This document shows, one piece after another, positions 7,440-22,256 of a DNA stretch of 64,000 nucleotides (its first letter is position 1; each line of letters opens with the position of its first letter). The notes below the pieces were generated by a model. That model did not search any database, had not been told where the DNA came from, and saw nothing but the letters and a program-made list of their open reading frames with translations. Where the stretch lies: contig JAPHRO010000019.1 in the NCBI GenBank assembly GCA_026195895.1, positions 21,354-85,353 of the forward strand. The letters are read 5' to 3'. Position numbers and translations under genes: made by a program. This DNA comes from Gammaproteobacteria bacterium. GTDB lineage: Bacteria; Pseudomonadota; Gammaproteobacteria; SZUA-229.

Positions 7440-8318
7440 TTAGCCGTTAATCTGAGCCATGACTTCGTCAGCGAAGTTCTCCTGTTTCTTCTCGATGCCT
7501 TCACCGACTTCATAACGGAAGAAGCTGTTTACATTCGCGTTGGCAGATTTAAGAAGTTGACCGACTGTTTGATCAGGGTCTTTAACAAAAGGCTGGCCAA
7601 TCAGGGTGATTTCAGCCAGGTATTTACGCACCCGACCTTCAATCATTTTCTCGATGATGCTATCAGGCTTGCCCGATTCTTTAGCTTGAGCAATCAAAAT
7701 TTCTTTTTCTTTCTCCAGCATTTCAGTGGGCACCTGATCCTCGTTTACACAGGCCGGGTTGCTCGCAGCAATATGCATCGCCACATCCTTAATAAGGTCG
7801 GCATTGTCCACGTCCATTTCAACCAGAACGCCAATACGAACACCATGCAGATAAGAGCCAAAGGCACCGTCTGTAGACACGCGCTGGAAACGACGTACCT
7901 GGATATTCTCACCAATTTTGGCAATCATTTCCTGACGAGTTTCTTCGATTGATTTGCCACCGTCTTCTAATGGCATCGCCGTCAGCGCTGCTACGTCGGC
8001 GGGAGAATCGGCAAGCACGCGATTTGCAACAGCAGTCGTGAACGCTTTAAAGTCATCACCACCGGAAACGAAATCGGTTTCACAGTTAACTTCAACAATT
8101 GCCGCTTCTTTTTTGTCGTCGCTAAGCGCGATAACAACCAGACCTTCGGCAGCAGTACGACCCGACTTTTTGTCTGCTTTTGCCAGGCCCGACTTACGCA
8201 TGTCTTCGATGGCTTTTTCCATATCACCATCAGCCGCCTGCAGGGCCTTCTTACATTCCATCATACCTGAGCCAGTACGCTCACGCAGTTCTTTAACCAT
8301 AGCAGCAGTAATCTGCAT
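7440..8318 (-). CDS. tsf: Translation elongation factor Ts
   Basis: Guanine-nucleotide exchange factor for EF-Tu. The 292 residues are close to the family norm (E. coli 283). The N-terminal UBA-like part has KELRERTGSGMMECKKAL at residues 9-26. The core contains the EF-Tu contact motif as VNCETDFVS and the phrase MHIAASNP. It starts 55 bp downstream of the rpsB stop. The promoter before rpsB and the hairpin after tsf define a two-gene transcription unit. Confidence 0.97.
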   Translation of the reverse strand: MQITAAMVKELRERTGSGMMECKKALQAADGDMEKAIEDMRKSGLAKADKKSGRTAAEGLVVIALSDDKKEAAIVEVNCETDFVSGGDDFKAFTTAVANRVLADSPADVAALTAMPLEDGGKSIEETRQEMIAKIGENIQVRRFQRVSTDGAFGSYLHGVRIGVLVEMDVDNADLIKDVAMHIAASNPACVNEDQVPTEMLEKEKEILIAQAKESGKPDSIIEKMIEGRVRKYLAEITLIGQPFVKDPDQTVGQLLKSANANVNSFFRYEVGEGIEKKQENFADEVMAQING

Positions 8319-8373
8319 TGCTTTTCACCTCATAAAAAAGTATTAAAAACGCTACTCGTTAACTATGTAGCTA

Positions 8374-9237
8374 TTATTTATCGCCTTCTGCTTCAGCAGG
8401 TGCGGCTTCGTCCTCAGCTTTTGGAGCTGCTTTTTTCTTTGGTGCAGCTTTTTTCACAGTCGCCTTTTTCTTGGGCACTGCTTTTTTCTTTGGCGCGGGC
8501 TTTGCTTCAGCGCTGTCCACTTCTACATATTCACTGTCCCCACCGGCGGTCAGGGAAGCGGCCTTGCCTTCGATGATCGCATCGGCGATGCCTTCAACAT
8601 ATAACTTGATGGCACGAATAGCATCGTCATTACCAGGGATAACATAATCAACTGAATCAGGCTGATTGTTAGTATCAACAACGCCGATAACTGGAATATT
8701 CAGGATACTGGCTTCATGAACAGCAATTTTTTCGTGGCCTACATCGACAACGAATACTGCGTCTGGAACACCGCCCATGTCTTTAATACCGCCAAGGGTT
8801 TTTTCCAGTTTTTCCATTTCGCGAGTCAGGTTCAATGCTTCTTTTTTGATCAGACGCTCAAAAGAACCATCGGTAGACATCTGCTCCAGCTCTTTCAGAC
8901 GGCGAATAGACTGGCGTACTGTATTGAAGTTGGTCAGCATACCGCCTAACCAGCGATGGTTTACATAAGGCATGCCACATCGTTCGGCTTCTTCACGCAT
9001 AATTTTAGAAGCCGCACGTTTAGTACCGACGAATAAAACTTTACCGTTGCTCGCTGCGATCTTACTGATGGCATTCAAAGCATCGTGGAACATTGGAAGG
9101 GTTTTTTCCAGATTAATGATATGGATTTTGTTACGTTCACCAAAGATATACTCTGCCATCTTTGGGTTCCAGAAACGGGTTTGGTGACCGAAATGAATTC
9201 CAGCCTCCAGCATTTGACGCATGGTCGCTTTTGCCAT
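8374..9237 (-). CDS. rpsB: 30S ribosomal protein S2 with a Lys/Ala/Pro-rich tail
   Basis: Small-subunit ribosomal protein needed for assembly and S1 docking. The core is typical: [19 protein letters not shown] near the start, [13 protein letters not shown], and the signature [16 protein letters not shown]. The protein is 287 residues against about 241 in E. coli. The extra C-terminal 45-50 residues are a low-complexity tail made of repeated PKKKA units ([12 protein letters not shown]) followed by an acidic end ([14 protein letters not shown]). The start is supported by a good ribosome site, CAGGAGATATCC, before ATG. The tail is probably disordered and RNA-binding, which is inference. Confidence 0.97.
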
Positions 9238-9385
9238 TGGATATCTCCTGACGGGTTAAGCCTCCACCTACCCCATGTAGCAACCCATTTCAGGGCTCAT
9301 TTAGAGCCATTCGGGCACCCAGTTACACGTGTCGGTAAGTGTGAGTATTTAAAAATAAAATTAAGTTTGCGCTAAGCGCGGCGGC

Positions 9386-9414
9386 TTTATACCATACCCG
9401 GGTTTATGACACAA
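9386..9414 (-). promoter_or_regulatory. Sigma-70-type promoter for rpsB-tsf
   Basis: On the minus strand TTGTGT (9409-9414) is followed by a 17 bp spacer and TATAAA (9386-9391), preceded by TG as in an extended -10. The predicted start leaves about 140 nt of leader before rpsB. That leader could hold the S2 autoregulatory structure known from other Gammaproteobacteria, but I could not fold it. Confidence 0.65.
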
Positions 9415-9509
9415 CAAAAATACATCTTAGAGATGAAATGGCTTTAACGCTAAGTCACCGAAATATAAAGTAAAATAGCCCACTTAACAGGTGCGGGCGC
9501 AGGAAATTA

Positions 9510-10277
9510 ATGAGCATAAAAATCAAAACCGCTGAAGAAATCGAAAAAATGCGTATTGCAGGTCGCCTGGCGGCTGAAGTGCTGCACATGATTCGCCCTC
9601 ATGTGAAAGCCGGCATTAGCACCGACGAACTGGATCGCATCTGCCACGATTATATCGTCAATGAACAACAGGCTATTCCTGCACCACTCAACTACCATGG
9701 CTTCCCCAAATCGATTTGCACCTCGATCAATCACCAGGTATGCCATGGCATTCCCAGCGAAAAGAAACTCAAAAAAGGCGATATCATTAATATTGACATC
9801 ACGGTCATCAAAGATGGCTATCATGGTGATACCAGCAAGATGTTCTATGTCGGCGAACCGAGCATCAAGGCCAGACGAGTATCTGAAATCGCCCATCAGT
9901 GTATGGTAAAAGGCATTGAACAGGTAAAACCGGGCGCACACCTGGGTGATATTGGCGCCGTGATTCAGCAACATGCCGAAGCTAATGGTTGCTCCGTGGT
10001 GCGTGAATACTGCGGCCATGGCATTGGTGTGGAATTTCACGAAGAGCCACAGGTACTGCATTATGGCAAAGCCGGTACCGGGGTTAAACTGGAACCCGGC
10101 ATGGTGTTCACTATTGAGCCGATGATTAATATTGGTAAACGCCAGGTCAAATTGCTGAATGACCAGTGGACCGTGGTCACCAAAGACCACAGTCTATCCG
10201 CCCAGTGGGAGCATACGCTGGTGGTCACCGATAGTGGCTATGAGGTGCTTACTATCTGTCCAGGCGACGATATTTAA
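9510..10277 (+). CDS. map: Methionine aminopeptidase, type I
   Basis: Removes the initiator methionine from nascent proteins. The length of 255 residues matches the short type I enzymes. Metal-ligand regions of the pita-bread fold are visible: NIDITVIKDGYHGDTSKMF (two Asp), the HGIGVEFHEEP segment (His), and the Glu-containing MVFTIEPMI and QWEHTLVVT. It begins after AGGAAATTA, divergently from rpsB, the classic arrangement. The next gene, glnD, follows after about 22 bp on the same strand. Confidence 0.96.
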   Translation: MSIKIKTAEEIEKMRIAGRLAAEVLHMIRPHVKAGISTDELDRICHDYIVNEQQAIPAPLNYHGFPKSICTSINHQVCHGIPSEKKLKKGDIINIDITVIKDGYHGDTSKMFYVGEPSIKARRVSEIAHQCMVKGIEQVKPGAHLGDIGAVIQQHAEANGCSVVREYCGHGIGVEFHEEPQVLHYGKAGTGVKLEPGMVFTIEPMINIGKRQVKLLNDQWTVVTKDHSLSAQWEHTLVVTDSGYEVLTICPGDDI

Positions 10278-10299
10278 CCAGGGATACCCGAGTTCAACT

Positions 10300-12948
10300 T
10301 TGAATACTATTTCTGCTTTCGATGCTGCCAGTTTTCAACAGGCGCTGCAAAATACCCCCGCCAATAGCCTGCAGCTATTTAAACAGGCGGTAGCCGCCGG
10401 CAATGAAACACTTAAAACCGCTTTTGAGCAGGGTGCCGATACCATTGAACTGGTGCATGCCCGAGCGGATTTTATTGATCAAATTTTACAGCAGGCCTTC
10501 ATTCACTGCTTTCATAACAGTGAACAGAATATCGCTTTAATCGCGGTTGGCGGCTACGGACGGGGCGAACTGCACCCGGTGTCTGATATCGACCTGATGC
10601 TGCTACTGGATCAAGCAGAATCAGCCGAAACTAAAAGCGCACTCGAACAGTTCCTCATGCTGCTATGGGATATCAAACTGGAGATCGGCCACAGCGTTCG
10701 TACCCTCACTGAATGCATAGACGAAGCTAAAGCCGACATCACGGTTGCTACAAATATCATGGAAGCCCGGTTGCTATACGGTGACCAGCAGCTATTCGAG
10801 GCGATGAAACAGGCAACTGGCCCCGACAAAATCTGGGATAGCCAGGCCTTCTTCCAGGCGAAACTGGACGAACAGGTAAAACGGCATCGGAAATTCCATG
10901 ACACTGCCTACAATCTGGAACCGAATATTAAGGAAAATTCCGGCGGTTTACGTGACATCCAGATGATCGGCTGGGTAGCCAAACGCCACTTTGGCGCCCA
11001 GACGCTGGAAGAACTGATCGATCATGGGTTTTTAACCCGATCTGAATTCAACACCCTGCAGGAAGGACAAACCCTGCTCTGGCGTATTCGCATGTGCCTG
11101 CATTACCTGACGGGACGGCGTGAAGACAGGTTGTTATTTGACCTGCAACGCCAATTAGCACAGCAGTTTGGCTATGAAGATGGTGAAAATAACCTGGCCA
11201 TCGAACAGTTCATGCAAACCTATTACCGCACCGTGATGCAATTAGAGCGTTTAAATGAGCTGCTACTCCAGTTATTCAGGGAAGCCATTCTGTATGCGGA
11301 TAAATCCGGCGAACCGGAAATTCTTAACCAGCGCTTCCAGCTGGTTAATGGCTATATTGAAGCCCGCTATCCAGAAATGTTCCAGGAACATCCCTCAGCA
11401 TTGCTGGAAATCTTTTTACTCATGGAGACGCGCGCCGATATTTGCGGTGTGCGGGCGGAGACCATCCGTCTCATTCGGGAACACCTGTATCTGATCGATG
11501 ACAAATTTCGCCAATCCGATACATCCAAACAGTTATTTATGGATATCATCCGCCAACCCAGGGGCGTCACCCACGAAATGCGCCGGATGAATCGCTACGG
11601 CATCCTCGCGGCCTATATCCCGGCATTTGAGAAAATCACCGGTCGCATGCAATATGACCTGTTCCACGCCTATACCGTCGATCAACATACCTTATTCGTG
11701 GTACGTAACATGCGCCGCCTGTCGGTACCCCAGTTCGCCCATGAATTTCCGCTGGCCAGCGGCATCTTCCATCACTTACCCAAGCCCGAACTGCTCTACC
11801 TGGCCGGTCTGTTTCACGATATCGCGAAAGGTCGCGGCGGCAACCATGCCGAACTGGGCGCCATTGATGGCAAGGAGTTCTGCCTGTCCCATGGCAAATC
11901 AGAGGAAGACAGCGAACTGGTTGCCTGGTTGATTAAAAATCACCTGCTAATGTCGATGGTGGCGCAGCGCAAAGACTTGAGTGATCCGGAAGTCATATCA
12001 GTATTTGCCGAACAGGCTGGTAATCAAATACGCCTTGATTACCTCTATTTGCTGACACTGTGTGATATTCGCGCAACGAATCCTACCCAGTGGAACTCCT
12101 GGAAAGATAATCTGCTGGCCGAGCTCTATCACAAAGCTTCCACCAACCTGCATATGGGCGATGAAAATCCAATAAATCGCGAAATGGCCATGCAGGCAGC
12201 ACAGACATCTGCCTTACGTTTATTATCCCAGCGGGGCTACAGTCCGGAAGTGATCAATGATCTGTGGCAGCATTTCACCAGCGATTACTTCCTGCACCAT
12301 GCACCCTATGAAATACGCTGGCATACGCAAACCATACTTGGCGCCAGAACGTCGGACTATCCTCTGGTCAATGCTCGGATCAGTGACGACACAGGCAGAA
12401 TTGAAATTTTCATATTTGCCAGGGAAGCACCCGACCTGTTTGCTCGCGTCGCCTCCACCATCGACCAGCTAGGTCTGACAACAGTCGATGCACAATTGAT
12501 GGCCACCGATAATGGACTGAAACTGGAAACCTTCAAGGTACTGGAAGAAGATGGCAGTATTTCCAACGCGGAATATCGCATACAGGAAATAATTGACCGC
12601 CTGAAAAAAGAACTTGGTAGTGAAAAAGCCACCACCGGCAACGCCTGGCGCCCAAAACCACGCACGCTGAAGCACTTCAGCGTTAAAACCCGAATACGGT
12701 TTGAACAGCTACCGGGTAAAGACTTAACCGCGTTGAATATCATTACTACTGACCGTCCGGGCCTGTTAGCCAGCCTCGCGCAGGCCTTTGTCGAATGCAA
12801 TATTCGCATTCACAACGCCAAAATCTCCACCGCAGGGGAAAAAGTCAACGACACCTTCCACATTACCGATAGCCAGAACCAGCCTCTGCTGAATGACGAT
12901 GTGAATCAACAGCTAAAAAAGACCATACTCAAACACCTTGGCGAATAA
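10300..12948 (+). CDS. glnD: Bifunctional uridylyltransferase/uridylyl-removing enzyme GlnD
   Basis: Nitrogen-status sensor that uridylylates PII proteins when glutamine is low and deuridylylates them when it is high. I place the start at TTG 10300, giving 882 residues (E. coli 890). The frame is open further upstream, but only inside map, and that part has no family resemblance. Using this start, the nucleotidyltransferase motif GGYGRGELHPVSDIDLMLL lies at about 84-102. The HD hydrolase motif LFHDIAKGRGGNHAELG is near 503. Two ACT domains start near 699 and 810 (IITTDRPGLLASLAQAF in the second), where glutamine is sensed. Its position after map is conserved in Gammaproteobacteria. Confidence 0.94.
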   Translation: MNTISAFDAASFQQALQNTPANSLQLFKQAVAAGNETLKTAFEQGADTIELVHARADFIDQILQQAFIHCFHNSEQNIALIAVGGYGRGELHPVSDIDLMLLLDQAESAETKSALEQFLMLLWDIKLEIGHSVRTLTECIDEAKADITVATNIMEARLLYGDQQLFEAMKQATGPDKIWDSQAFFQAKLDEQVKRHRKFHDTAYNLEPNIKENSGGLRDIQMIGWVAKRHFGAQTLEELIDHGFLTRSEFNTLQEGQTLLWRIRMCLHYLTGRREDRLLFDLQRQLAQQFGYEDGENNLAIEQFMQTYYRTVMQLERLNELLLQLFREAILYADKSGEPEILNQRFQLVNGYIEARYPEMFQEHPSALLEIFLLMETRADICGVRAETIRLIREHLYLIDDKFRQSDTSKQLFMDIIRQPRGVTHEMRRMNRYGILAAYIPAFEKITGRMQYDLFHAYTVDQHTLFVVRNMRRLSVPQFAHEFPLASGIFHHLPKPELLYLAGLFHDIAKGRGGNHAELGAIDGKEFCLSHGKSEEDSELVAWLIKNHLLMSMVAQRKDLSDPEVISVFAEQAGNQIRLDYLYLLTLCDIRATNPTQWNSWKDNLLAELYHKASTNLHMGDENPINREMAMQAAQTSALRLLSQRGYSPEVINDLWQHFTSDYFLHHAPYEIRWHTQTILGARTSDYPLVNARISDDTGRIEIFIFAREAPDLFARVASTIDQLGLTTVDAQLMATDNGLKLETFKVLEEDGSISNAEYRIQEIIDRLKKELGSEKATTGNAWRPKPRTLKHFSVKTRIRFEQLPGKDLTALNIITTDRPGLLASLAQAFVECNIRIHNAKISTAGEKVNDTFHITDSQNQPLLNDDVNQQLKKTILKHLGE

Positions 12949-12954
12949 GCGATG

Positions 12955-12990
12955 TGCAATGTAGAGAAAACCATAATTCTCTGCATTGCA
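12955..12990 (+). other. Strong hairpin just after glnD
   Basis: A 14 bp stem (TGCAATGTAGAGAA with TTCTCTGCATTGCA, one G-T pair) around an 8-base loop begins 6 bp after the glnD stop. It is followed by AAAAATAC rather than a T run, so it is not a standard intrinsic terminator. It may protect the 3' end of the mRNA or act as a weak or Rho-assisted stop. Confidence 0.55.
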
Positions 12991-13071
12991 AAAATACTGT
13001 ACTACAATAAAACAATGGCTTAGCGTAGATTGTTAATCTAGAACTATAGCCGCTGTTGATAAATTAACTCT

Positions 13072-14568
13072 GTGGGCAGTTGGGTGAAAAGAATTAAAAA
13101 CAAACATTTATTGGGCATCGTACTGGGTCTATTTATTGCTGCAACGGGCCTGCACAACGCTCTGGCTACTCAGAAATCACCGCTGGACGCGCTGGTCATC
13201 ATGGATAGCTCGGGCAGCATGAAAAAAACCGATCCCAGGGAATTACGCAAACCGGCGGCCAAACTATTCATTACCCTGCTGGGTAATGAAGATAAGCTCA
13301 GCGTCGTTAGTTTTAGTTCCCAGGCCTGGCCGATCACCTTCCTCACCCAGCTCAACACTGAAACAAACAAAGACAAGGCCATCAAGGCTACCGACCGGGT
13401 GTCATCTAAAGGCATCTATACCAACATTCACGCCGCCATTGTTAAAGGCATAGACATGCTGAAAGCAAGCAAGGCACTGGATCGAGATCCGATTATTGTG
13501 CTGATGTCGGATGGCAAAATGGATGTGGGCGATGCAAACAAATCCACTGAACTACGCCAGCAAATATTCGATGAACTGATTCCCCAACTAAAACAGCACC
13601 ATATTAAAATCTACAGCATTGCGTTTACCGAAAACTCGGATCAGACACTGCTGCAGGAGATTGCAGATGCCACTGAAGGTCGCTATGCACTGGCTGCCAG
13701 TGATGATGTGCTGCATAAAGTCTTCGCAAAAATATTCGAACAAAGCAAAGAACCTAATTTGCTCCCCTTATCCGAAAATCAATTTGTTGTTGACCCCAGT
13801 ATTCGGGAAATAACCATTATTGCGAATAAAAAATCCGACCAGAGCAAAATTTATCTGGAATCTCCAGGGGGTCACCGCTACAACTCAAACTTCAAAAAAC
13901 AGGGTCTGAAATGGTTTGAATCCCCTGGTTTCGACATGATCACCTTGAGCAAACCCGAAGCAGGCAACTGGAAAATTCTGTTCAGTGATGATGACAATAA
14001 GGCCTATATCGTGGCAGATATAAAACTGCGCACACAGTTTGAATACAACACTGAAAGTTATTATCCAGAATTGATGATTAAAACCTGGTTTGATAAAGAC
14101 GATGCGACGGTGTCGAACAATGAACTGCTGAATAATATGGAACTGGTTCTTGAAATAGAGCACCCCGATGGCTCTATAGATAAACAGGACATTGATGCTG
14201 CCAATGCCGATGGCATATTTACAACGCGGTATAAACCGACTATGGATGGTATTTACGCAGCCAGTATCATCGCCACGTCCAAAACATTTCAGCGTCAGCA
14301 GATATTCTCTTTCCGAGCAGTTATTCCTAAACAGCCCCCGCCGGAACCAGAACCTGAAATAGAAACAACTGAAGAAATTAAGTCCGTAGACGAAACTAAA
14401 ACGGAAGTTGTGCCGATAGCTGAACCCGCACCGGCTCAGCAAGAACCCGAAGACGATCTGACACAGGCATTAATTTATTTTTTGATTGGCAATTTAATTC
14501 TGTTATTTCTTGGTGTAAATGGTTTTCTGATATTCCGCATGATGAAAAATAAAAAGACCAGTCAATAA
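13072..14568 (+). CDS. Periplasmic von Willebrand factor A domain protein with C-terminal membrane anchor
   Basis: Unnamed protein of up to 498 residues. GTG at 13072 or GTG at 13084 could be the start; neither has a good ribosome site. A signal sequence (KNKHLLGIVLGLFIAATGLHNALA) precedes a vWA domain with an intact MIDAS: DSSGS in the first strand, a Thr in KGIYTNIHAA, and Asp in VLMSDGKMDVGD. It therefore probably binds a divalent metal and a protein ligand. A beta-rich region (about 225-410) and a Pro/Glu-rich linker follow, then one hydrophobic helix (LIYFLIGNLILLFLGVNGFL) and a short basic tail, which suggests most of the protein is periplasmic. The coiled-coil gene starts 2 bp after its stop, so the two are probably one unit. 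Function unknown. Confidence 0.85.
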   Translation: MGSWVKRIKNKHLLGIVLGLFIAATGLHNALATQKSPLDALVIMDSSGSMKKTDPRELRKPAAKLFITLLGNEDKLSVVSFSSQAWPITFLTQLNTETNKDKAIKATDRVSSKGIYTNIHAAIVKGIDMLKASKALDRDPIIVLMSDGKMDVGDANKSTELRQQIFDELIPQLKQHHIKIYSIAFTENSDQTLLQEIADATEGRYALAASDDVLHKVFAKIFEQSKEPNLLPLSENQFVVDPSIREITIIANKKSDQSKIYLESPGGHRYNSNFKKQGLKWFESPGFDMITLSKPEAGNWKILFSDDDNKAYIVADIKLRTQFEYNTESYYPELMIKTWFDKDDATVSNNELLNNMELVLEIEHPDGSIDKQDIDAANADGIFTTRYKPTMDGIYAASIIATSKTFQRQQIFSFRAVIPKQPPPEPEPEIETTEEIKSVDETKTEVVPIAEPAPAQQEPEDDLTQALIYFLIGNLILLFLGVNGFLIFRMMKNKKTSQ

Positions 14569-14570
14569 AT

Positions 14571-15827
14571 ATGTACATCCCAAGCATTTACATTTTATTT
14601 TTGGCCGAATTCCTGCTTCTCCTGCTTGGAGCCTGTATAGTTCTGGTCATTTATGTTTTCAAATCAAAGTCAGCCAGTTCGGAACCCGAAACCCCTCAGC
14701 TTGATGAAGCTGAAAAACAGATTAATCCTGGCACCAGCTACAGCGAATACATTGAACAGGAACAGCTAAGAAACGAAATAAAAACCAGCCAGCAGGCACG
14801 CATAGAATCTGAAGAGATTACCGAAAATGAACAACCGACTGAGGACAATATTGAAAACCTGTCCCAAGCACCCAATGAACAGCAAAGCGAATTACTCAAT
14901 GCTCGTCACTTATTCCTGGACGTGGAAAGACAGGCGGCCGAACACAGTGAAAATGATATTACTTTCTGGGAAACACTTTATGGGGGTATGCAAAAGGTCC
15001 TGGAACAGCTTAAAACATCTGAAATTGTTTATACTGAAACAACAGAAGAACATGAGCCAGTTCATACACAGACCGAAACCAGAGAAAAAATATTCTACAT
15101 TGAAGCCCAGGGCAAAAATATCGATGGTGAAGTAACCAAGTTAAAAGACATTGTATTTGAACAGGAAAACAGCCTGAATAGCCTGAGAAAGGCGCTCAAA
15201 AATGCTGAAGGCGTGTCACCTGACATAGCAGAACAACTCACCGAACTATTCTCACAAATTGATAATTTCGAACGCCAGCTAAACGATTCTAAAATGTGTA
15301 TCGAAGTTCTTGAGATGGAGAACGATAAACTACAGAAAGAAGTTGGTAAACTTGAAAAACGGCATTCGGAGTTATTCGAACAGGATGGCGAGAAAGAGAC
15401 AGAGACAGATTCTGAAGCTGAAGCATCATCAATGATAGATTTGGCCGAGATGAAGGAAGTGCTGGATAAACAGGAACAGCAAATCAATGAATTGCTAACT
15501 ACGATTGATAATCTGTCTCTTGAAGCAGAACAGGCTGAAAAACTAAAGGCCACGATTCATGATTTCACACGCACCAGCCATGAAATGATGGGATGCATTT
15601 CCATCCTGGAAGAAGACAACGAGCGCCTGAAAGAACAACTCAGCCATGTCGGCGTTACTTCTCCAGAAGACGAATCAAATGGCGATACCGAACAGCTACA
15701 AAGCCAGATAAGCACACTGGAAGAAGACCTTATCAAAAAAGATGTAGCTTATGCGCAACTGCAGGATGAGTTCAATTCCATGGAAAAAGAATATCTCTCT
15801 ATGTATGAGGCATTACATGGAGATTAA
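14571..15827 (+). CDS. Membrane-anchored coiled-coil protein, function unknown
   Basis: A 418-residue protein I do not recognise. One hydrophobic helix at about residues 6-30 (IYILFLAEFLLLLLGACIVL) is followed by lysines (KSKSAS), which by the positive-inside rule puts the rest in the cytoplasm. The remainder is acidic, rich in Glu, Gln and Leu, with long heptad-like stretches from about 190 to the end, e.g. LKDIVFEQENSLNSLRKAL and DNERLKEQLSHV. It lies 2 bp after the vWA gene. The pair could form a cross-membrane assembly, with the vWA domain outside and the coiled coil inside, but this is inference. No catalytic motif is visible. Confidence 0.8.
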   Translation: MYIPSIYILFLAEFLLLLLGACIVLVIYVFKSKSASSEPETPQLDEAEKQINPGTSYSEYIEQEQLRNEIKTSQQARIESEEITENEQPTEDNIENLSQAPNEQQSELLNARHLFLDVERQAAEHSENDITFWETLYGGMQKVLEQLKTSEIVYTETTEEHEPVHTQTETREKIFYIEAQGKNIDGEVTKLKDIVFEQENSLNSLRKALKNAEGVSPDIAEQLTELFSQIDNFERQLNDSKMCIEVLEMENDKLQKEVGKLEKRHSELFEQDGEKETETDSEAEASSMIDLAEMKEVLDKQEQQINELLTTIDNLSLEAEQAEKLKATIHDFTRTSHEMMGCISILEEDNERLKEQLSHVGVTSPEDESNGDTEQLQSQISTLEEDLIKKDVAYAQLQDEFNSMEKEYLSMYEALHGD

Positions 15828-15849
15828 TTATTAGAAAGCAAACAAATGA

Positions 15850-17049
<1,200 letters not shown>

Positions 17050-17079
17050 AACATATACATCTGAAAAAGGCATAGAAAA

Positions 17080-17463
17080 ATGAACCGGGAAAAAGTCGTC
17101 TTTAGTTTTTTTATGATACTGGCCCTGACCTTGAATTTTGGTTTCTTCGCTGGCTCAGTTGATAATCCAGAGCACCACAATGTCTACGAGCTTTATGCTG
17201 TTGTAATTGTCAATCTCATTGCAACCATATTAAAATTTGGCGATCGGTCACAAATGGGCGCAATGCTACTAGCGACTAGCCTGGTCGCTCTGGTTCAACT
17301 ACTTTCTGCCTCTCTTGTCTGGGCCGTTGCGGTCCATGTAAACGAAACCGGCTTAACACCCAATACCATGGCGACGATAGTTTCCCTCAGTGGAGGTGCC
17401 ATGGTCGCAAACATTATATCTGTGGTGCTGCTAATAATTGAAACAGCCATGATGCGTCACTAA
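17080..17463 (+). CDS. DUF6394-family small membrane protein
   Basis: A 127-residue protein with about four hydrophobic segments: KVVFSFFMILALTLNFGFFAG, YAVVIVNLIATIL, a central LLATSLVALVQLLSASLVW, and VANIISVVLLIIET at the end. It resembles the DUF6394 family of inner-membrane proteins of unknown function. The assignment is from recall of the sequence type. The K+ channel gene begins 12 bp after its stop, so the two are probably co-transcribed, and the protein may assist or modulate the channel, which is inference. Confidence 0.8.
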   Translation: MNREKVVFSFFMILALTLNFGFFAGSVDNPEHHNVYELYAVVIVNLIATILKFGDRSQMGAMLLATSLVALVQLLSASLVWAVAVHVNETGLTPNTMATIVSLSGGAMVANIISVVLLIIETAMMRH

Positions 17464-17475
17464 AAGGCATCACCC

Positions 17476-19254
17476 ATGTCAGTGGTGACTTCCATCATAC
17501 TGCGCCAGATGCGCGCACCTTTTATTATCCTTATTATGGGGTACAGTATTGCTATCCTCGGTATGGTGCTCACACCAGGGATTGATGACCAAGGTAATGA
17601 ATGGCATATGAGCATCTTCGATGCCATCTATTTTGTCAGCTATACCGCAACCACCATCGGCTTTGGAGAAATACCCTATCCACTTAGCAGTGCACAACGC
17701 ATGTGGGCACTTGTCACCATCTATGTCACTGTTACTTCATGGTTTTATGCACTTGGAAAAACGCTATCCTTAATTCAGGATCCCACGTTTAGAGAAGCCT
17801 TAACAAAAAATACTTTTTCCCGAAATCTGAAGAAAATTAACGAGTCATTTATTCTGATTTGCGGATTTGGAGAAACCGGTACAGCACTGGCCCATGCCTT
17901 AACAGAAAGGAATATTCGTGCAGTCATCATTGAACGAGATAATGACAAACTACAAACCTTACCACTCGCCGATTTCCCCGTCTTTGTTCCAGGTATACAG
18001 GGTGATGCCCGAGATCCCGAGCAACTCATACGGGCCGGACTTCAACATAAAAAATGTGCTGCGATTATCGCTGTAACCGCTTCTGATGAAACCAATCTCA
18101 AAATTGCAATTTCAAGTAAATTACTAAACCCTAAAATTTGTGTTATTTGTCGCTCAGAATTAAGGGACTTTGAAGAAAACATGTTTTCTTTTGGTACCGA
18201 CTTTGTCATTAACCCTTTTCAAACCTTTGCAAATATCTTTGCCATGGCCATGCATTCGCCTTCACTACACCTGCTTTATGACTGGTTAACCGGTGTTCCT
18301 AATACCAGTTTAACCAACCCTGTATATATACAGGAAGGACACTGGATTATTTGCGGCTTTGGTCGATTTGGGCAAAGCCTGTATAAACAATTAATCAGAT
18401 ATGAAACCCCTGTAACGATCATTGATCCATCTGAGGCGAAGCGAGAAAAGTTTTTAAATAAACCTGAAAATAAAAACAATGATTTTATTATTGGCTCAGG
18501 CTTTGACGCCCACACACTTAAACTAGCGGGTGTCGAAGAAGCAGCGGGTCTGATTTCCGGCAGCGATAATGACTCGAATAATTTATCGATTATTATGACG
18601 GCGCGTGAACTTAATCCTGAATTATTTACTGTGGCCCGGCAAAATAAAAAGGCCAACGAAAAATTATTTATTGCTACACATGCCAATATCCTGATGCAAC
18701 CGAGTGAAATAATTGCCCGCAAAATACGCACCCTTCTAAACTCCCCATTAATGATTGCCTTTCTTAACAAAGCGCGTCATCAGGATCCTGAATGGGCTAA
18801 TATCGCAATCAGTCGTTTGAGTGGCGTTTTAGGCGAAGAAAGACCGAACATATGGACCATAAGTGTTACCAAAAAAGAAGCAAAAGCACTTCATCTTACG
18901 CTTAATCTTGGCAGGGTTATTCGTGTTGGCAATTTGTTACAAGATCCAAGAGCGCGCGAAAACAGTTTAAAAAGCGTTGCTCTGCTGCTAAAGCGAAATA
19001 ATAAGTTACTACTAATGCCAACCGATGACATCGCCATAAAAGCCGATGATCAAATCCTTTATTGTGGCACTCCCGTAGCCGAACGCAGTATGAAATGGAC
19101 GCTGAATGATATTCATAGCCTGAATTACATAATGACTTATGAAGACACTCCTGATTCCTTTGTCTGGCGAAAACTACATAGCTATATAAAAAGAAACGAT
19201 CGCCGACGCCGGCCTCGTGCGCAACGACATCTGGATCACTCCAAAAAACATTAA
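17476..19254 (+). CDS. Two-helix potassium channel with tandem RCK (TrkA-N/TrkA-C) domains
   Basis: A 592-residue ligand-gated cation channel type. The N-terminal part has a first helix (APFIILIMGYSIAILGMVL), a pore loop with selectivity filter TATTIGFGE at residues 57-65, and a second helix. The usual K+ filter is TVGYGD; TIGFGE is a common bacterial variant. Two Rossmann domains with nucleotide-binding glycines follow: CGFGETG at about 130 and CGFGRFG at about 293. Residues after about 420 resemble TrkA-C. The C-terminus is very basic (DRRRRPRAQRH). It probably handles K+ flux gated by nucleotides or ions. It is paired with the DUF6394 gene upstream. Confidence 0.88.
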   Translation: MSVVTSIILRQMRAPFIILIMGYSIAILGMVLTPGIDDQGNEWHMSIFDAIYFVSYTATTIGFGEIPYPLSSAQRMWALVTIYVTVTSWFYALGKTLSLIQDPTFREALTKNTFSRNLKKINESFILICGFGETGTALAHALTERNIRAVIIERDNDKLQTLPLADFPVFVPGIQGDARDPEQLIRAGLQHKKCAAIIAVTASDETNLKIAISSKLLNPKICVICRSELRDFEENMFSFGTDFVINPFQTFANIFAMAMHSPSLHLLYDWLTGVPNTSLTNPVYIQEGHWIICGFGRFGQSLYKQLIRYETPVTIIDPSEAKREKFLNKPENKNNDFIIGSGFDAHTLKLAGVEEAAGLISGSDNDSNNLSIIMTARELNPELFTVARQNKKANEKLFIATHANILMQPSEIIARKIRTLLNSPLMIAFLNKARHQDPEWANIAISRLSGVLGEERPNIWTISVTKKEAKALHLTLNLGRVIRVGNLLQDPRARENSLKSVALLLKRNNKLLLMPTDDIAIKADDQILYCGTPVAERSMKWTLNDIHSLNYIMTYEDTPDSFVWRKLHSYIKRNDRRRRPRAQRHLDHSKKH

Positions 19255-19328
19255 CTCAGGACTACATAATAAGCATCACTCATTGTATGATACGCAAGCT
19301 AAATTAAATTTGCTCTGACAGCTGTTGA

Positions 19329-19334
19329 TATAAT
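19329..19334 (+). promoter_or_regulatory. -10 element of the tRNA-Arg promoter
   Basis: TATAAT lies 22 bp before the mature tRNA 5' end, preceded by TTGA. A clear -35 is not visible at 16-18 bp. Confidence 0.45.
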
Positions 19335-19356
19335 ATGCCTGTTTTAGCTAAAAACT

Positions 19357-19432
19357 GTCCTCGTAGCATAACGGATAATGCAACTCCCTCCTAAGGAGTA
19401 GATTGCAGGTTCGAATCCTGCCGAGGACGCCA
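19357..19432 (+). tRNA. tRNA-Arg (anticodon CCT)
   Basis: A complete 76-base cloverleaf: acceptor stem GTCCTCG with CGAGGAC, D arm GCAT/ATGC, anticodon stem ACTCC/GGAGT with loop CTCCTAA (anticodon CCT at 19390-19392, reading AGG), and T arm GCAGG-TTCGAAT-CCTGC. CCA is encoded. ppiB begins 26 bp later, so tRNA and ppiB may share a transcript. Confidence 0.95.
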
Positions 19433-19458
19433 TTTCCTTAACCATGAGATAGTAAACA

Positions 19459-19959
19459 ATGTCTGAAAAAGTCTGCCTTGATACCAACCACGGAAAAATT
19501 ATCATAGAACTGGATACTGAAAAAGCACCCATTACTACTGAAAATTTTCTGAATTATGTCAAAGATGAATTCTATAACGCAACAATATTCCATCGTGTTA
19601 TTCCAGGATTCATGATCCAGGGTGGTGGCTTTCTTGAAGGCATGATTCAAAAATCCACTAACGATCCAGTCAAAAATGAAGCTGACAATGGCCTGCCCAA
19701 CAAACGCGGCACTATTGCAATGGCTCGCACGCCCGATCCAGATTCGGCCAGCTCACAGTTTTTCATTAATCTGAAAGACAATGATTTTTTGAACTATACC
19801 GCGCCTACTTCACAGGGCTGGGGCTATTGCGTGTTTGGTGAAGTAACTGAAGGTATGGATATTGTTGACAGCATTGCCCAGGTTGCAACGGGCAGCAGCA
19901 TGGGACACGGTGATGTGCCAGTGGAAACTGTTGTCATCAACAGTGCTAGCATAGTTTAA
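19459..19959 (+). CDS. ppiB: Cytoplasmic peptidyl-prolyl cis-trans isomerase (cyclophilin B)
   Basis: A 166-residue cyclophilin without a signal peptide, accelerating proline isomerisation in folding proteins. Family motifs are present: the [13 protein letters not shown] catalytic stretch with its Arg, then [18 protein letters not shown] and [12 protein letters not shown]. The tRNA-ppiB-lpxH order matches many gammaproteobacterial genomes. The lpxH start follows after 17 bp. Confidence 0.96.
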
Positions 19960-19976
19960 AATTATGCATCGATATT

Positions 19977-20702
19977 ATGTCGAAAATTCTTTTTATTTCT
20001 GATCTGCATCTGGCGCCTGAACGGCCTGACATCATCCAGCTTTTTATAAAATTCCTTGATGAGCAGGCCAGTGCCGCCAGCGCACTATATATTCTTGGCG
20101 ATCTCGTTGAATACTGGCTGGGCGATGATGATCAGGCCGCAGGTCTCGACGATGCATTTGGAAAGTTAAAAGAAACATCCGATAAAGGCATTAACATTTA
20201 TCTCATGCATGGCAACCGTGATTTTCTGATGGGAGAACGGCTGGCAAACAAATGTGGTTGCACTCTCATCCATGAGCCTTACATCGCTGATCTCAATAAA
20301 ACTCCTGCATTGTTATTGCATGGTGACACTTTATGTACCGATGATACTGGCTATCAGCAATTGCGACAGATGCTAAGAAACCCTGCCTGGCAAAAAGATT
20401 TTCTGGCCAAGCCGCTTACAGAACGGGAACAAATGGCTCAGGCACTACGTGAACAGAGCAAGCAGGAAACGCAATCTAAATCTGCTGAAATTATGGATGT
20501 GAATGCCGATGCAGTAGCCGCAGCTTTTAAAGACCATGGGATTTCACTGATCATTCATGGCCATACTCATCGTCCAGATATTCACTATTATAAAATTGAT
20601 AATCGACAACTGACGCGTATTGTACTGGGCGACTGGTATAAATCAGGCAACGTGCTGGAATTCGAAGACATCAACAATTACAGACTCAGAGAATTTAATT
20701 AA
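19977..20702 (+). CDS. lpxH: UDP-2,3-diacylglucosamine hydrolase LpxH
   Basis: Calcineurin-like phosphoesterase that makes lipid X in lipid A synthesis, acting at the inner face of the cytoplasmic membrane. The 241 residues show all dimetal motifs in order: SDLHLAP at 8-14, LGDLVEYWLGDD, MHGNRDF, and GHTHRPDIH near the C-terminus. It lies 17 bp after ppiB and converges with the minus-strand gene at 20718; no terminator hairpin is visible in the 15 bp between them. Confidence 0.96.
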   Translation: MSKILFISDLHLAPERPDIIQLFIKFLDEQASAASALYILGDLVEYWLGDDDQAAGLDDAFGKLKETSDKGINIYLMHGNRDFLMGERLANKCGCTLIHEPYIADLNKTPALLLHGDTLCTDDTGYQQLRQMLRNPAWQKDFLAKPLTEREQMAQALREQSKQETQSKSAEIMDVNADAVAAAFKDHGISLIIHGHTHRPDIHYYKIDNRQLTRIVLGDWYKSGNVLEFEDINNYRLREFN

Positions 20703-20717
20703 TATATTTTTTGTCTC

Positions 20718-21422
20718 TTACTCAGGCACAAAAGCCGCATATTTCCGGTAGGACTCGGGCAATTTAAATAAACTATTAGCCACAGATATTTTTTGATAAT
20801 TTTTTAAAATTTTTGCATAACCTCGCGCATGCCATTCCTGCACGGGCAAACCTAAATCATAATACTCACCATTATTGTAAATCTGAGCCAGTAAAAAACA
20901 GGGTGTCTGCATCTCTTTTGGGGTGTTTTTCATCATTCTGCTTTGCTGACCGGAAAGAATATTTTGATAAGATTTAAAAACGGCCATTTCATCTGTATAT
21001 ATATTGGGTATCAACTGTACATCCATACATATTTCATCATCTGCTTTTAAGTGCATTGTTTTCAGATGTTTACCCGCAATGGTCGGCGCATCTTTCAATT
21101 CGTTTATCTCAATTTTCCTGTTGAAATTAAACATCGGCATTTTCCATAGGAATTTATTGATAAATAAAATTGTCCGATCTTCCCGGTTTACGCTATAAAT
21201 GATCTCTGCGGATTTATCATAAAGAATAAAATCATCGTCCGCATCACCATAGTCAATCCGCAGAAAATCAGGCGTCACCAGGTAGCGCATCTCAGTCTGA
21301 CCTGCATCTTTTTCAATCTCATCGTAAAAAAATGCCATGGCTGAAATAAACTGCTTATCATCCTGTGCAAATACCGGTGTGCTATGCAGAGCTATCAATA
21401 ATATAGCCATTATTTTTTTCAT
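20718..21422 (-). CDS. Secreted protein of unknown function
   Basis: A 234-residue protein with a clear signal peptide (MKKIMAILLIALHSTPVFAQ, cleavage after FAQ or VFA). The mature part has mixed beta-strand-like stretches, e.g. TEMRYLVTPDFLRIDYGDAD and DRTILFINKFLW, and two cysteines (EICMDVQ, TPCFLL) that could form a disulfide. The first half, about a value read out as ILYDKSAEIIYSVNRED, recalls periplasmic DUF4412-like proteins, but I cannot assign it. It is alone on its strand, 30 bp from the DUF455 gene upstream, possibly in one unit with it. Confidence 0.75.
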   Translation of the reverse strand: MKKIMAILLIALHSTPVFAQDDKQFISAMAFFYDEIEKDAGQTEMRYLVTPDFLRIDYGDADDDFILYDKSAEIIYSVNREDRTILFINKFLWKMPMFNFNRKIEINELKDAPTIAGKHLKTMHLKADDEICMDVQLIPNIYTDEMAVFKSYQNILSGQQSRMMKNTPKEMQTPCFLLAQIYNNGEYYDLGLPVQEWHARGYAKILKNYQKISVANSLFKLPESYRKYAAFVPE

Positions 21423-21452
21423 AAGTTTATAACCACTACGTTAACCAGTAAT

Positions 21453-22256
21453 TCATAATTCGAGAGCCTTCAGGTCAGCGATTTCCTGCTCGGTAAAACC
21501 GGCCTGTTTGCGAGCAACTTCATCATAAGGACCGCGCAATGATCCTTTCATATAATCGTTGATTAGTTGTTTGAAAGTCTCTCTGGATTCAAGTTGCCGC
21601 TGGGCGCACAAATATTTAAACCAGTGATTGCCAATAGCCACATGCCCTATTTCATCACGCTGAATGATTTTTAAATGCTCGACAAACTCCATGTCGTGCA
21701 CCTGCTGTAACTTAGCCATAATTCCCGGGGTGACATCCAGTCCCCTGGCTTCCAGCACCCGTGGCACCAGTGCCATCCGTATCATTACATCATGGGCCGT
21801 TTTCTGGGCCATTTCCCAGAGACCATTGTGCGCATCGTAGTCGCCATAAGCATGACCACGATCTTTTAGATATTGTTCTAACAGGCTGAAATGATAAGCT
21901 TCTTCGTCGGCAACCCTGATCCAGTCGCTATAGAATTTTCGCGGCATATCCCGAAAACGATACACTGCATCAAGCGCCAGGTTGATGGCATTAAACTCAA
22001 TGTGAGCCAGTGCATGCGCCAGTATTATTCTACCTGACTCAGAATTGACACTGCGTCTGGGTAAATTTTTAGGTGAAACCAGATGAGGTTTGTCAGGTCG
22101 CCCCGCTTCACCAATCGGCTCGACCGGTTCAGTACTATCCAGACTTAGCTCACCAGCACGCCAGGCCCGGGCCAGGGCACGGGTCAGTGTATATTTGTCG
22201 TTGCAGTCAGAGGACTGTAAACACCGATTAGCCTGCTGAAAAAGTGATAATGACAT
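21453..22256 (-). CDS. DUF455 ferritin-like protein
   Basis: A 267-residue protein of the DUF455 family (COG2833), a ferritin-like four-helix bundle expected to bind a diiron centre. The carboxylate/histidine helices are visible: HIEFNAINLALDAVYR, RVADEEAYHFSLLEQYL and MEFVEHLKIIQRDEIGHVAIG. The C-terminal RGPYDEVARKQAGFTEQE is also characteristic. The family's biochemical role is not established; relatives include tRNA hydroxylase-like and stress proteins. The start is ATG at 22256. Confidence 0.9.
   Translation of the reverse strand: MSLSLFQQANRCLQSSDCNDKYTLTRALARAWRAGELSLDSTEPVEPIGEAGRPDKPHLVSPKNLPRRSVNSESGRIILAHALAHIEFNAINLALDAVYRFRDMPRKFYSDWIRVADEEAYHFSLLEQYLKDRGHAYGDYDAHNGLWEMAQKTAHDVMIRMALVPRVLEARGLDVTPGIMAKLQQVHDMEFVEHLKIIQRDEIGHVAIGNHWFKYLCAQRQLESRETFKQLINDYMKGSLRGPYDEVARKQAGFTEQEIADLKALEL

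What the first reader, a model, noticed from the sequence alone, without database searches (positions are those of the whole stretch)
13072..15827. Two-gene unit: periplasmic vWA receptor and cytoplasmic-side coiled coil
A vWA protein with an intact metal-ion-dependent adhesion site, a beta-rich and Pro-rich region and one C-terminal helix is followed 2 bp later by a protein with one N-terminal helix and a long acidic coiled coil. The topology by the positive-inside rule suggests a complex spanning the inner membrane, one part outside and the other inside. I know no named system of this shape; it is the best candidate here for an undescribed assembly, perhaps a cell-envelope sensor or scaffold.
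Basis: partly seen in the sequence, partly recalled or inferred. Interest (0 to 1): 0.7.

Follow-up and report, generated by a model that had tools for sequence, protein, structure and literature searches.

The report
Widespread membrane-spanning vWA/coiled-coil protein pair
Two neighbouring genes, kept side by side in many bacteria, encode a receptor-type protein predicted to sit outside the inner membrane and a coiled-coil protein predicted to reach into the cell; one conserved polar residue in each membrane helix likely joins them, so the pair would link something in the periplasm to something in the cytoplasm, much as the McaA/McaB proteins that position magnetic organelles are thought to do.

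Summary
In detail: 13072-14568 encodes a signal-peptide/vWA/beta-domain/single-TM protein with an intact MIDAS, and 14571-15827 a protein with one N-terminal TM helix and an acidic coiled coil. The unit is conserved. In 274 gammaproteobacterial genomes, 59 of 64 with a partner hit also have a TIGR03503-type (vWA family) hit, and in 56 of those 59 the two lie close together. The pair also occurs in Nitrospirota. Two features were not in the finding. (1) In 98 of 100 de-duplicated pairs the vWA TM helix carries an Asn and the partner TM helix a Glu (95) or Gln (3), at similar depth. (2) Thermodesulfobacteriota relatives are single-chain: vWA-TM-coil, 37 proteins ending in the partner's EYxxMY motif, without Asn in the TM core. 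Most likely the two chains form a transmembrane heteromer joined by this polar pair, connecting a periplasmic MIDAS ligand to a cytoplasmic scaffold. A named system of this shape exists: McaA/McaB of magnetotactic bacteria, which binds the actin-like MamK. The window pair lacks McaA's long cytoplasmic tail, and homology to McaAB could not be tested. Complex, ligand and target are inferred.

The parts
13072..14568 (+). gene 1: vWA protein, 498 aa (GTG start)
   Evidence: ORF; Pfam VWA 59 bits, GBD_Hemicentin 32.5 bits; NCBIfam TIGR03503 69 bits, below its cut-off of 305.6
13072..13167 (+). predicted signal peptide, residues 1-32 (KRIKNK..., hydrophobic 13-31, ALA then T)
   Evidence: hydropathy; cleavage site read from the sequence
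13183..13749 (+). vWA domain, residues 38-226
13204..13218 (+). MIDAS DxSGS motif, codons D45-S47-S49 (with T117 at 13420-13422 and D147 at 13510-13512)
   Evidence: nearly invariant columns of A1, 32 rows; DxSxS as the MIDAS motif is stated in PMC9512821, T and second D recalled
13780..14049 (+). beta domain, residues 237-326 (GBD_Hemicentin / start of TIGR03503)
14068..14319 (+). second beta domain, Ig-like by its strand pattern, residues 333-416
14320..14454 (+). Pro/Glu-rich linker, residues 417-461, low confidence
   Evidence: sequence; pLDDT 46-69 in blocks 421-460
14479..14535 (+). C-terminal TM helix core, residues 470-488; Asn474 at codon 14491-14493
   Evidence: Asn nearly invariant in A1
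14571..15827 (+). gene 2: partner, 418 aa, N-terminal TM helix plus acidic coiled coil
   Evidence: ORF; no Pfam family over cut-off, nor for nine related partners
14592..14648 (+). partner TM helix, residues 8-26; Glu13 at codon 14607-14609
   Evidence: Glu invariant in A4 (18 rows) and A3 (40 rows), 24 of 25 in A2 (exception L101 by reading)
15108..15818 (+). coiled-coil helices, residues 180-416
15789..15806 (+). EYLSMY motif, residues 407-412 (EYxxMY)
   Evidence: strict motif in 55 of 94 partners against 1.1 expected by shuffling

Best explanation
The two genes encode a conserved protein pair that is predicted to form one complex across the inner membrane, in which a vWA receptor, predicted periplasmic, and a coiled-coil protein, predicted cytoplasmic, are likely clasped together by an Asn in one membrane helix and a Glu in the other. 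The vWA domain would bind a metal-dependent ligand in the periplasm through its intact MIDAS. The TM pair would fix the coil beneath that site. The coil, through its conserved EYxxMY end, would hold or organise a cytoplasmic partner, most likely a cytoskeletal filament or scaffold, as reported for McaA/McaB and the actin-like MamK. Shown: domain content, MIDAS, adjacency, the conserved polar pair, natural fusions. Inferred: signal peptide, topology, the complex, the helix contact, ligand, cytoplasmic target, and any likeness of function to McaAB. Where the Glu is replaced in vWA-linked partners it is by Gln; only L101, whose vWA protein also lacks the Asn, and three unlinked partner-like genes (L231, L235, L236) have neither. 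So hydrogen bonding is favoured over proton coupling.
For: Co-occurrence: TIGR03503 hits in 78 of 274 class genomes, partner profile A3 in 64 of 274, both in 59. 12 of the other 19 TIGR03503 genomes carry a partner of another subtype next door. Polar pair: of 100 de-duplicated pairs, Asn with Glu 95, Asn with Gln 3, Glu without Asn 1 (L239), neither 1 (L101). Of 120 partner proteins listed from the large database (related to each other), Glu 95, Gln 23, 2 cut before the TM helix. Depth: Asn lies a median 15 and Glu/Gln 16 residues from the first cytoplasmic basic residue, 93 pairs, median paired difference 3. Fusions: all 37 proteins with a long coil tail have the motif (chance about 0.7% per tail), and none has Asn in the TM core; P0141 has one just ahead of it, before His-Lys. 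Sister contrast: in family f65, L099 lacks Asn and partner while L093 has both (support 93, not starred). McaAB layout and MamK binding: PMC9512821, PMC13170167. Soluble McaA and McaB parts without TM helices did not bind in vitro, while full-length proteins co-precipitate, which would fit a TM contact.
Against: Eight loci without an adjacent partner keep the Asn. The tree-based independent-pairs test of Asn loss with partner loss is underpowered and not significant (4 pairs, median p 0.5). The link between fusion tails and separate partners rests on a short motif: BLASTP E 0.015, 2.9 and 0.005. Orphan partner-like genes with Glu occur in two genomes without an A1 match (L232, L233), and as a second copy in a third (L234). 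A Shewanella/Vibrio/Alteromonas-like set (names by eye) has lost the vWA domain but keeps the beta domains and Asn. No conserved neighbour points to a function.
Confidence: 0.52

Rival explanations
1. Envelope sensor: ligand binding to the vWA shifts the TM pair and the coil signals to a cytoplasmic regulator, rather than anchoring a filament.
For: Receptor-like order vWA, beta domains, linker, one TM; Foldseek ranks ANTXR2 complexes second and third. Polar TM pairs are common in assembled receptors (recalled).
Against: No regulator recurs at a fixed place beside the pair; response-regulator-like genes form one loose cluster at scattered positions (26 loci). The partner shows no catalytic or output domain.
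Confidence: 0.25
2. Proton-motive-force coupled unit: the TM Glu is protonated in a cycle, as in TolQ/ExbB or MotA-type motors (families recalled).
For: A near-invariant carboxylate inside a TM helix.
Against: Gln replaces Glu in 3 of 98 conserved pairs and in 23 of 118 intact listed database proteins, and cannot be protonated. Only one TM helix found per protein, signal peptide aside.
Confidence: 0.05
3. MoxR/vWA chaperone or aerotolerance-type (Bat) module.
For: vWA domain; weak BatA match 27.5 bits, cut-off 380. A MoxR-like gene (by eye) lies downstream in Thalassolituus L187 and near Hahella L188.
Against: No MoxR seen by eye among the ORFs of 90 aa or more in 8000-22000. The MoxR neighbours belong to partner-less relatives.
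Confidence: 0.04
4. Adjacency without complex: two envelope proteins share an operon but act apart.
For: Orphan partner-like genes exist. McaA and McaB largely occupy different zones of the cell.
Against: Natural fusions and the paired TM residues.
Confidence: 0.14

Closest known systems
McaA/McaB of Magnetospirillum magneticum AMB-1 (Wan 2022 PMC9512821; Ra 2026 PMC13170167)
   Same: Signal peptide, periplasmic vWA with intact MIDAS, one TM helix; second protein with a few residues, one TM helix and a cytoplasmic coiled coil; consecutive locus tags for the mca-like pair (amb0908, amb0907); McaB (219 aa) is the size of many gammaproteobacterial partners
   Different: McaA has about 380 cytoplasmic residues with a conserved 530 region, the window protein a tail of roughly ten residues. 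The window protein has TIGR03503-type beta domains. Most hosts here are not named as magnetotactic. Sequence homology and the TM polar pair in McaAB are untested
TIGR03503 family (NCBIfam)
   Same: Residues 231-364 match the model at 3.4e-19
   Different: 69 bits against a cut-off of 305.6; the one protein over the cut-off in 274 genomes (L091) lacks the vWA domain and has no adjacent partner
vWA-TM-coiled-coil fusion proteins of Thermodesulfobacteriota (37 of P0121-P0159)
   Same: Same vWA family, beta domains, TM helix and EYxxMY coil end
   Different: One chain, no Asn in the TM core
FtsB/FtsL (PMC8749076 and others; listing and abstract starts only)
   Same: Single-pass proteins joined through TM helices and a coiled coil (partly recalled)
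   Different: Coil is periplasmic, no vWA; no sequence link sought
ANTXR2-type vWA receptors
   Same: vWA plus beta domain plus one TM (recalled); fold match
   Different: Eukaryotic, single chain, no coiled-coil partner; fold likeness is to the vWA

Membership tests
Pfam VWA (PF00092) | Score over gathering cut-off | tested here: met
   59 against 23.8 bits
Pfam VWA (PF00092) | Intact MIDAS residues | tested here: met
   D45, S47, S49, T117, D147 present and nearly invariant
TIGR03503 | Score over curated cut-off | tested here: not met
   69 against 305.6 bits
McaA/McaB | Periplasmic vWA with MIDAS, one TM; partner with N-terminal TM and cytoplasmic coil; neighbouring genes | tested here: met
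   topology is predicted
McaA/McaB | Conserved cytoplasmic region of McaA (530-665) | tested here: not met
   tail after the TM helix is roughly ten residues
McaA/McaB | Sequence homology to AMB-1 McaA and McaB | not testable with these tools
   no McaAB sequence could be reached; the phylum search gave one hit outside the class, of another architecture, at E up to 1e-25
McaA/McaB | Binding of MamK | not testable with these tools
   bench assay; MamK not searched for in this genome
MoxR/Bat vWA modules | MoxR AAA+ gene in the cluster | tested here: not met
   none seen by eye among the ORFs of 90 aa or more in 8000-22000
MoxR/Bat vWA modules | BatA model cut-off | tested here: not met
   27.5 against 380 bits for the Leptospira BatA model

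The most novel reading that the evidence does not exclude
The pair is a general bacterial transmembrane clutch, integrin-like in logic: a periplasmic MIDAS receptor clasped through an Asn-Glu/Gln pair inside the membrane to a coil that grips a cytoskeletal filament. McaA/McaB would be its magnetosome-adapted branch, so that a system described as specific to magnetotactic bacteria is one offshoot of a module found across Gammaproteobacteria and Nitrospirota.
Probability: 0.27. Interest if true: 0.85.

Novelty: new variant of a known kind. Interest (0 to 1): 0.6.

Why it matters
It turns two hypothetical genes into a defined, testable unit whose family is found in more than a quarter of sampled gammaproteobacterial genomes (78 of 274 have a TIGR03503-type hit; at least one of these lacks the vWA domain). 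It gives residues to mutate, N474 and E13. It also bears on McaA/McaB, where soluble parts failed to bind in vitro although the full-length proteins co-precipitate: if McaA and McaB carry the same TM residues, part of the missing contact may be in the membrane. It would put periplasm-to-cytoskeleton coupling on a wider footing in bacteria.

Tried and rejected
Gene neighbourhoods: no functional neighbour recurs at a fixed place apart from the partner (genomic settings such as glnD/dapE recur within lineages). FimV core (216 of 274) and PilT family (257 of 274) are near-universal in the sample; PilT is present in all 78 TIGR03503 genomes against 179 of 196 others (Fisher p 0.004, relatedness ignored), too weak to build on. 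Fold comparison of the whole model is dominated by the vWA, so the beta domains were not tested alone. Profile A3 against solved structures gave 16 matches, helical bundles and coiled coils with one HAMP domain. Partner in the genomes of partner-less relatives: only weak hits, two of them below 1e-3 (G299, G300; an earlier single-sequence try found none in them). My first count of partner-less loci was too high because of my ORF selection; corrected. Papers: TIGR03503, 0 papers; vWA/glnD/dapE, 0; two broader searches gave McaAB and the FtsZl1-vWA operons (PMC2875224, passages only), which are another system; two of the four papers listed also concern vWA proteins in conflict systems (listing only). 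For PMC9512821 I saw abstract, passages and sections 9, 10, 13; for PMC13170167 abstract, passages, section 5 and part 1 of section 11; their supplements not at all. A phylum-wide hit (G347/L251) proved to be a vWA-TM protein with FHA-like domains, by eye. Plasmid collection: one weak hit in a chromosome-sized Aeromonas record. Rows dropped before counts: five duplicates by hand, five by identity, with seven contig-edge loci set apart; L164 (no TM helix in the piece) is among the 16 partner-less loci but has no Asn call. In the tree 50 of 98 normal pairs were used. L125 and L227 were counted as Asn/Glu by reading, since the script's thresholds missed them. One search printed 37 of 38 tails with the motif; the 38th (P0162) is not a fusion, as one search shows, so the count is 37 fusions. 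One search's wider window also flagged one Asn among these 37; by the segments printed it is P0141's, ahead of the hydrophobic core.

Full report
What is there. Gene 1 (13072-14568, 498 aa) and gene 2 (14571-15827, 418 aa) lie 2 bp apart between glnD- and dapE-like genes, names recalled from their sequences. Gene 1 has a predicted signal peptide, a vWA domain (59 bits) with the MIDAS residues D45, S47, S49, T117 and D147, two beta domains, a Pro/Glu linker and one C-terminal TM helix. Gene 2 has one TM helix at residues 8-26 and long acidic helices. No Pfam family reaches its cut-off for gene 2 or for the nine related partners scanned. A promoter/terminator scan gave nothing clearly above shuffled expectation; one terminator-like hairpin overlaps the end of gene 2.

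Is it a unit? In 40 relatives the vWA query hits 23 genomes and the partner query 13; four of the 23 (G001, G010, G012, G021) have only weak vWA matches, E 1e-7 to 2e-9, likely vWA proteins of other kinds. In 274 gammaproteobacterial genomes, TIGR03503 hits 78 and the gammaproteobacterial partner profile A3 hits 64; 59 are shared, and Fisher p is 6e-37 with relatedness ignored. Of those 59 partner hits (best hit of each genome at the TIGR03503 locus where there was one), 56 lie on the same contig within 2.5 kb; G181, G223 and G069 do not. Of the 19 TIGR03503 genomes without an A3 hit, 12 have a partner of another subtype next door. The other 7 are G031, G038, G088, G162 and G294, without one, and G128 and G179, at contig ends. 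A3 hits without TIGR03503 are G118, G135 and G251 (clear) and G075 and G207 (weak). A scan of named genomes extends the pair to Nitrospirota and single MAGs labelled otherwise; it kept the best 80 of at least 377 relatives.

The membrane pair. The 25 diverse partners of A2 share one nearly invariant residue besides the start Met: a Glu inside the TM helix. It is invariant in A3 (40 rows) and A4 (18 rows). The vWA proteins share an Asn in their TM helix (90% or more of 32). In 100 de-duplicated adjacent pairs, 95 have Asn with Glu and 3 Asn with Gln (L117, L119, L121). L239 has Glu without Asn, and L101 lacks both; the two further partner-like genes of L101's genome (L235, L236) also lack Glu at that place. 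In the listed database hits 95 of 120 partners have Glu, 23 Gln, and 2 are cut before the TM helix. Both residues sit at similar depth: median 15 and 16 residues before the first basic residue, 93 pairs, median paired difference 3.

Loss of the partner. Of 16 partner-less loci, 7 lack the Asn, 8 keep it and one (L164) has no TM helix in its piece. Two of the 7 are fusions. Family f65 gives a contrast: L093 has Asn and partner, L099 neither. On a tree of 72 rows Asn changes 6 times and partner 8 times, but the independent-pairs test has only 4 pairs and is not significant. Covariation is therefore suggestive, not proven. Thalassolituus, Gilvimarinus and others keep the Asn with no partner found beyond weak hits.

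Fusions. L142, L149 and their homologues carry the vWA, the beta domains, one TM helix and about 120 cytoplasmic residues of coil. All 37 listed homologues with such a tail have the EYxxMY motif near its end (about 0.7% expected per shuffled tail; the 37 are related), and none has Asn in the TM core; P0141 has one just ahead of it. Three non-fused proteins in the same list (P0160-P0162) keep the Asn. Separate partners have the strict motif in 55 of 94 against 1.1 expected. Direct BLASTP between a fusion tail and partners is weak: E 0.015, 2.9, 0.005. I read this as a one-chain version of the pair, on motif and position rather than on significant alignment.

How it likely works. By prediction the vWA is outside and the coil inside. 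The MIDAS would bind a periplasmic ligand; the Asn-Glu pair would hold the two helices together; the coil would present its EYxxMY end to a cytoplasmic target. The Glu-to-Gln exchanges argue for hydrogen bonding rather than a proton cycle. Ligand and target are unknown. By analogy I commit to a filament or scaffold as the target.

What is known. McaA of AMB-1 has a signal peptide, a periplasmic vWA whose MIDAS is needed for function and localisation, one TM helix and a cytoplasmic part; McaB has an N-terminal TM helix, a cytoplasmic C-terminus and a coiled coil at 81-112 (PMC9512821, PMC13170167). They co-precipitate with each other and with MamK, and the McaB cytoplasmic part co-pellets with MamK. 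Binding of the soluble parts McaA 400-776 and McaB 28-219, which lack the TM helices, was not detected in vitro; but two-hybrid tests of the full-length proteins were also negative, contact needs McaA's 530 region, and McaA fragments thought to lack the TM helix still co-eluted with McaB. So the McaAB data do not settle a TM contact. The 2022 paper calls the genes specific to magnetotactic bacteria. The window pair has the same layout, but no McaA-type cytoplasmic region, and I could not reach an McaA or McaB sequence. I therefore say 'works like', not 'is'. A phylum-wide search with A1 (41 of 378 genomes at E up to 1e-25) found one genome outside the class, with a vWA-FHA-like protein; how many Alphaproteobacteria it held is unknown.

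Verdict. A real, conserved, largely undescribed pair with a specific and testable membrane contact; a new variant of the McaA/McaB kind of system by architecture, with function inferred.

Noticed in passing
17080-19254: After the dapE-like gene lie a DUF6394 membrane protein and a two-TrkA_N ion-channel-like protein; genes of the same sizes and order follow in L079, L083 and L084.
   Followed up: no
L252, L253, L254: A Shewanella/Vibrio/Alteromonas-like set (names by eye) encodes a vWA-less version (beta domains and TM only, Asn kept) beside a dnaQ-like gene, without a partner next to it.
   Followed up: partly
L236 (4807-6162, minus strand): A partner-like gene without the TM Glu lies directly downstream of CheY- and CheZ-like genes (names by eye); the genome (G087) has three partner-like genes.
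   Followed up: partly
L178 genome G307, C194:76647-77517: Methylomonas koyamae may hold two partner-like genes in tandem (second hit weak, E 0.1).
   Followed up: no
L144: A record titled Klebsiella pneumoniae (MAG) carries the pair; the label is probably wrong (the TIGR03503 search rang in none of 14 control genomes; Enterobacterales were not searched as such).
   Followed up: no
L251 (7002-9422): A vWA-TM protein with two FHA-like domains (by eye) after the TM helix, in a genome outside the class (G347).
   Followed up: no
G000:C67:50630-51148: The window's genome holds a second, distant vWA protein (585 aa frame, E 1.6e-7).
   Followed up: no
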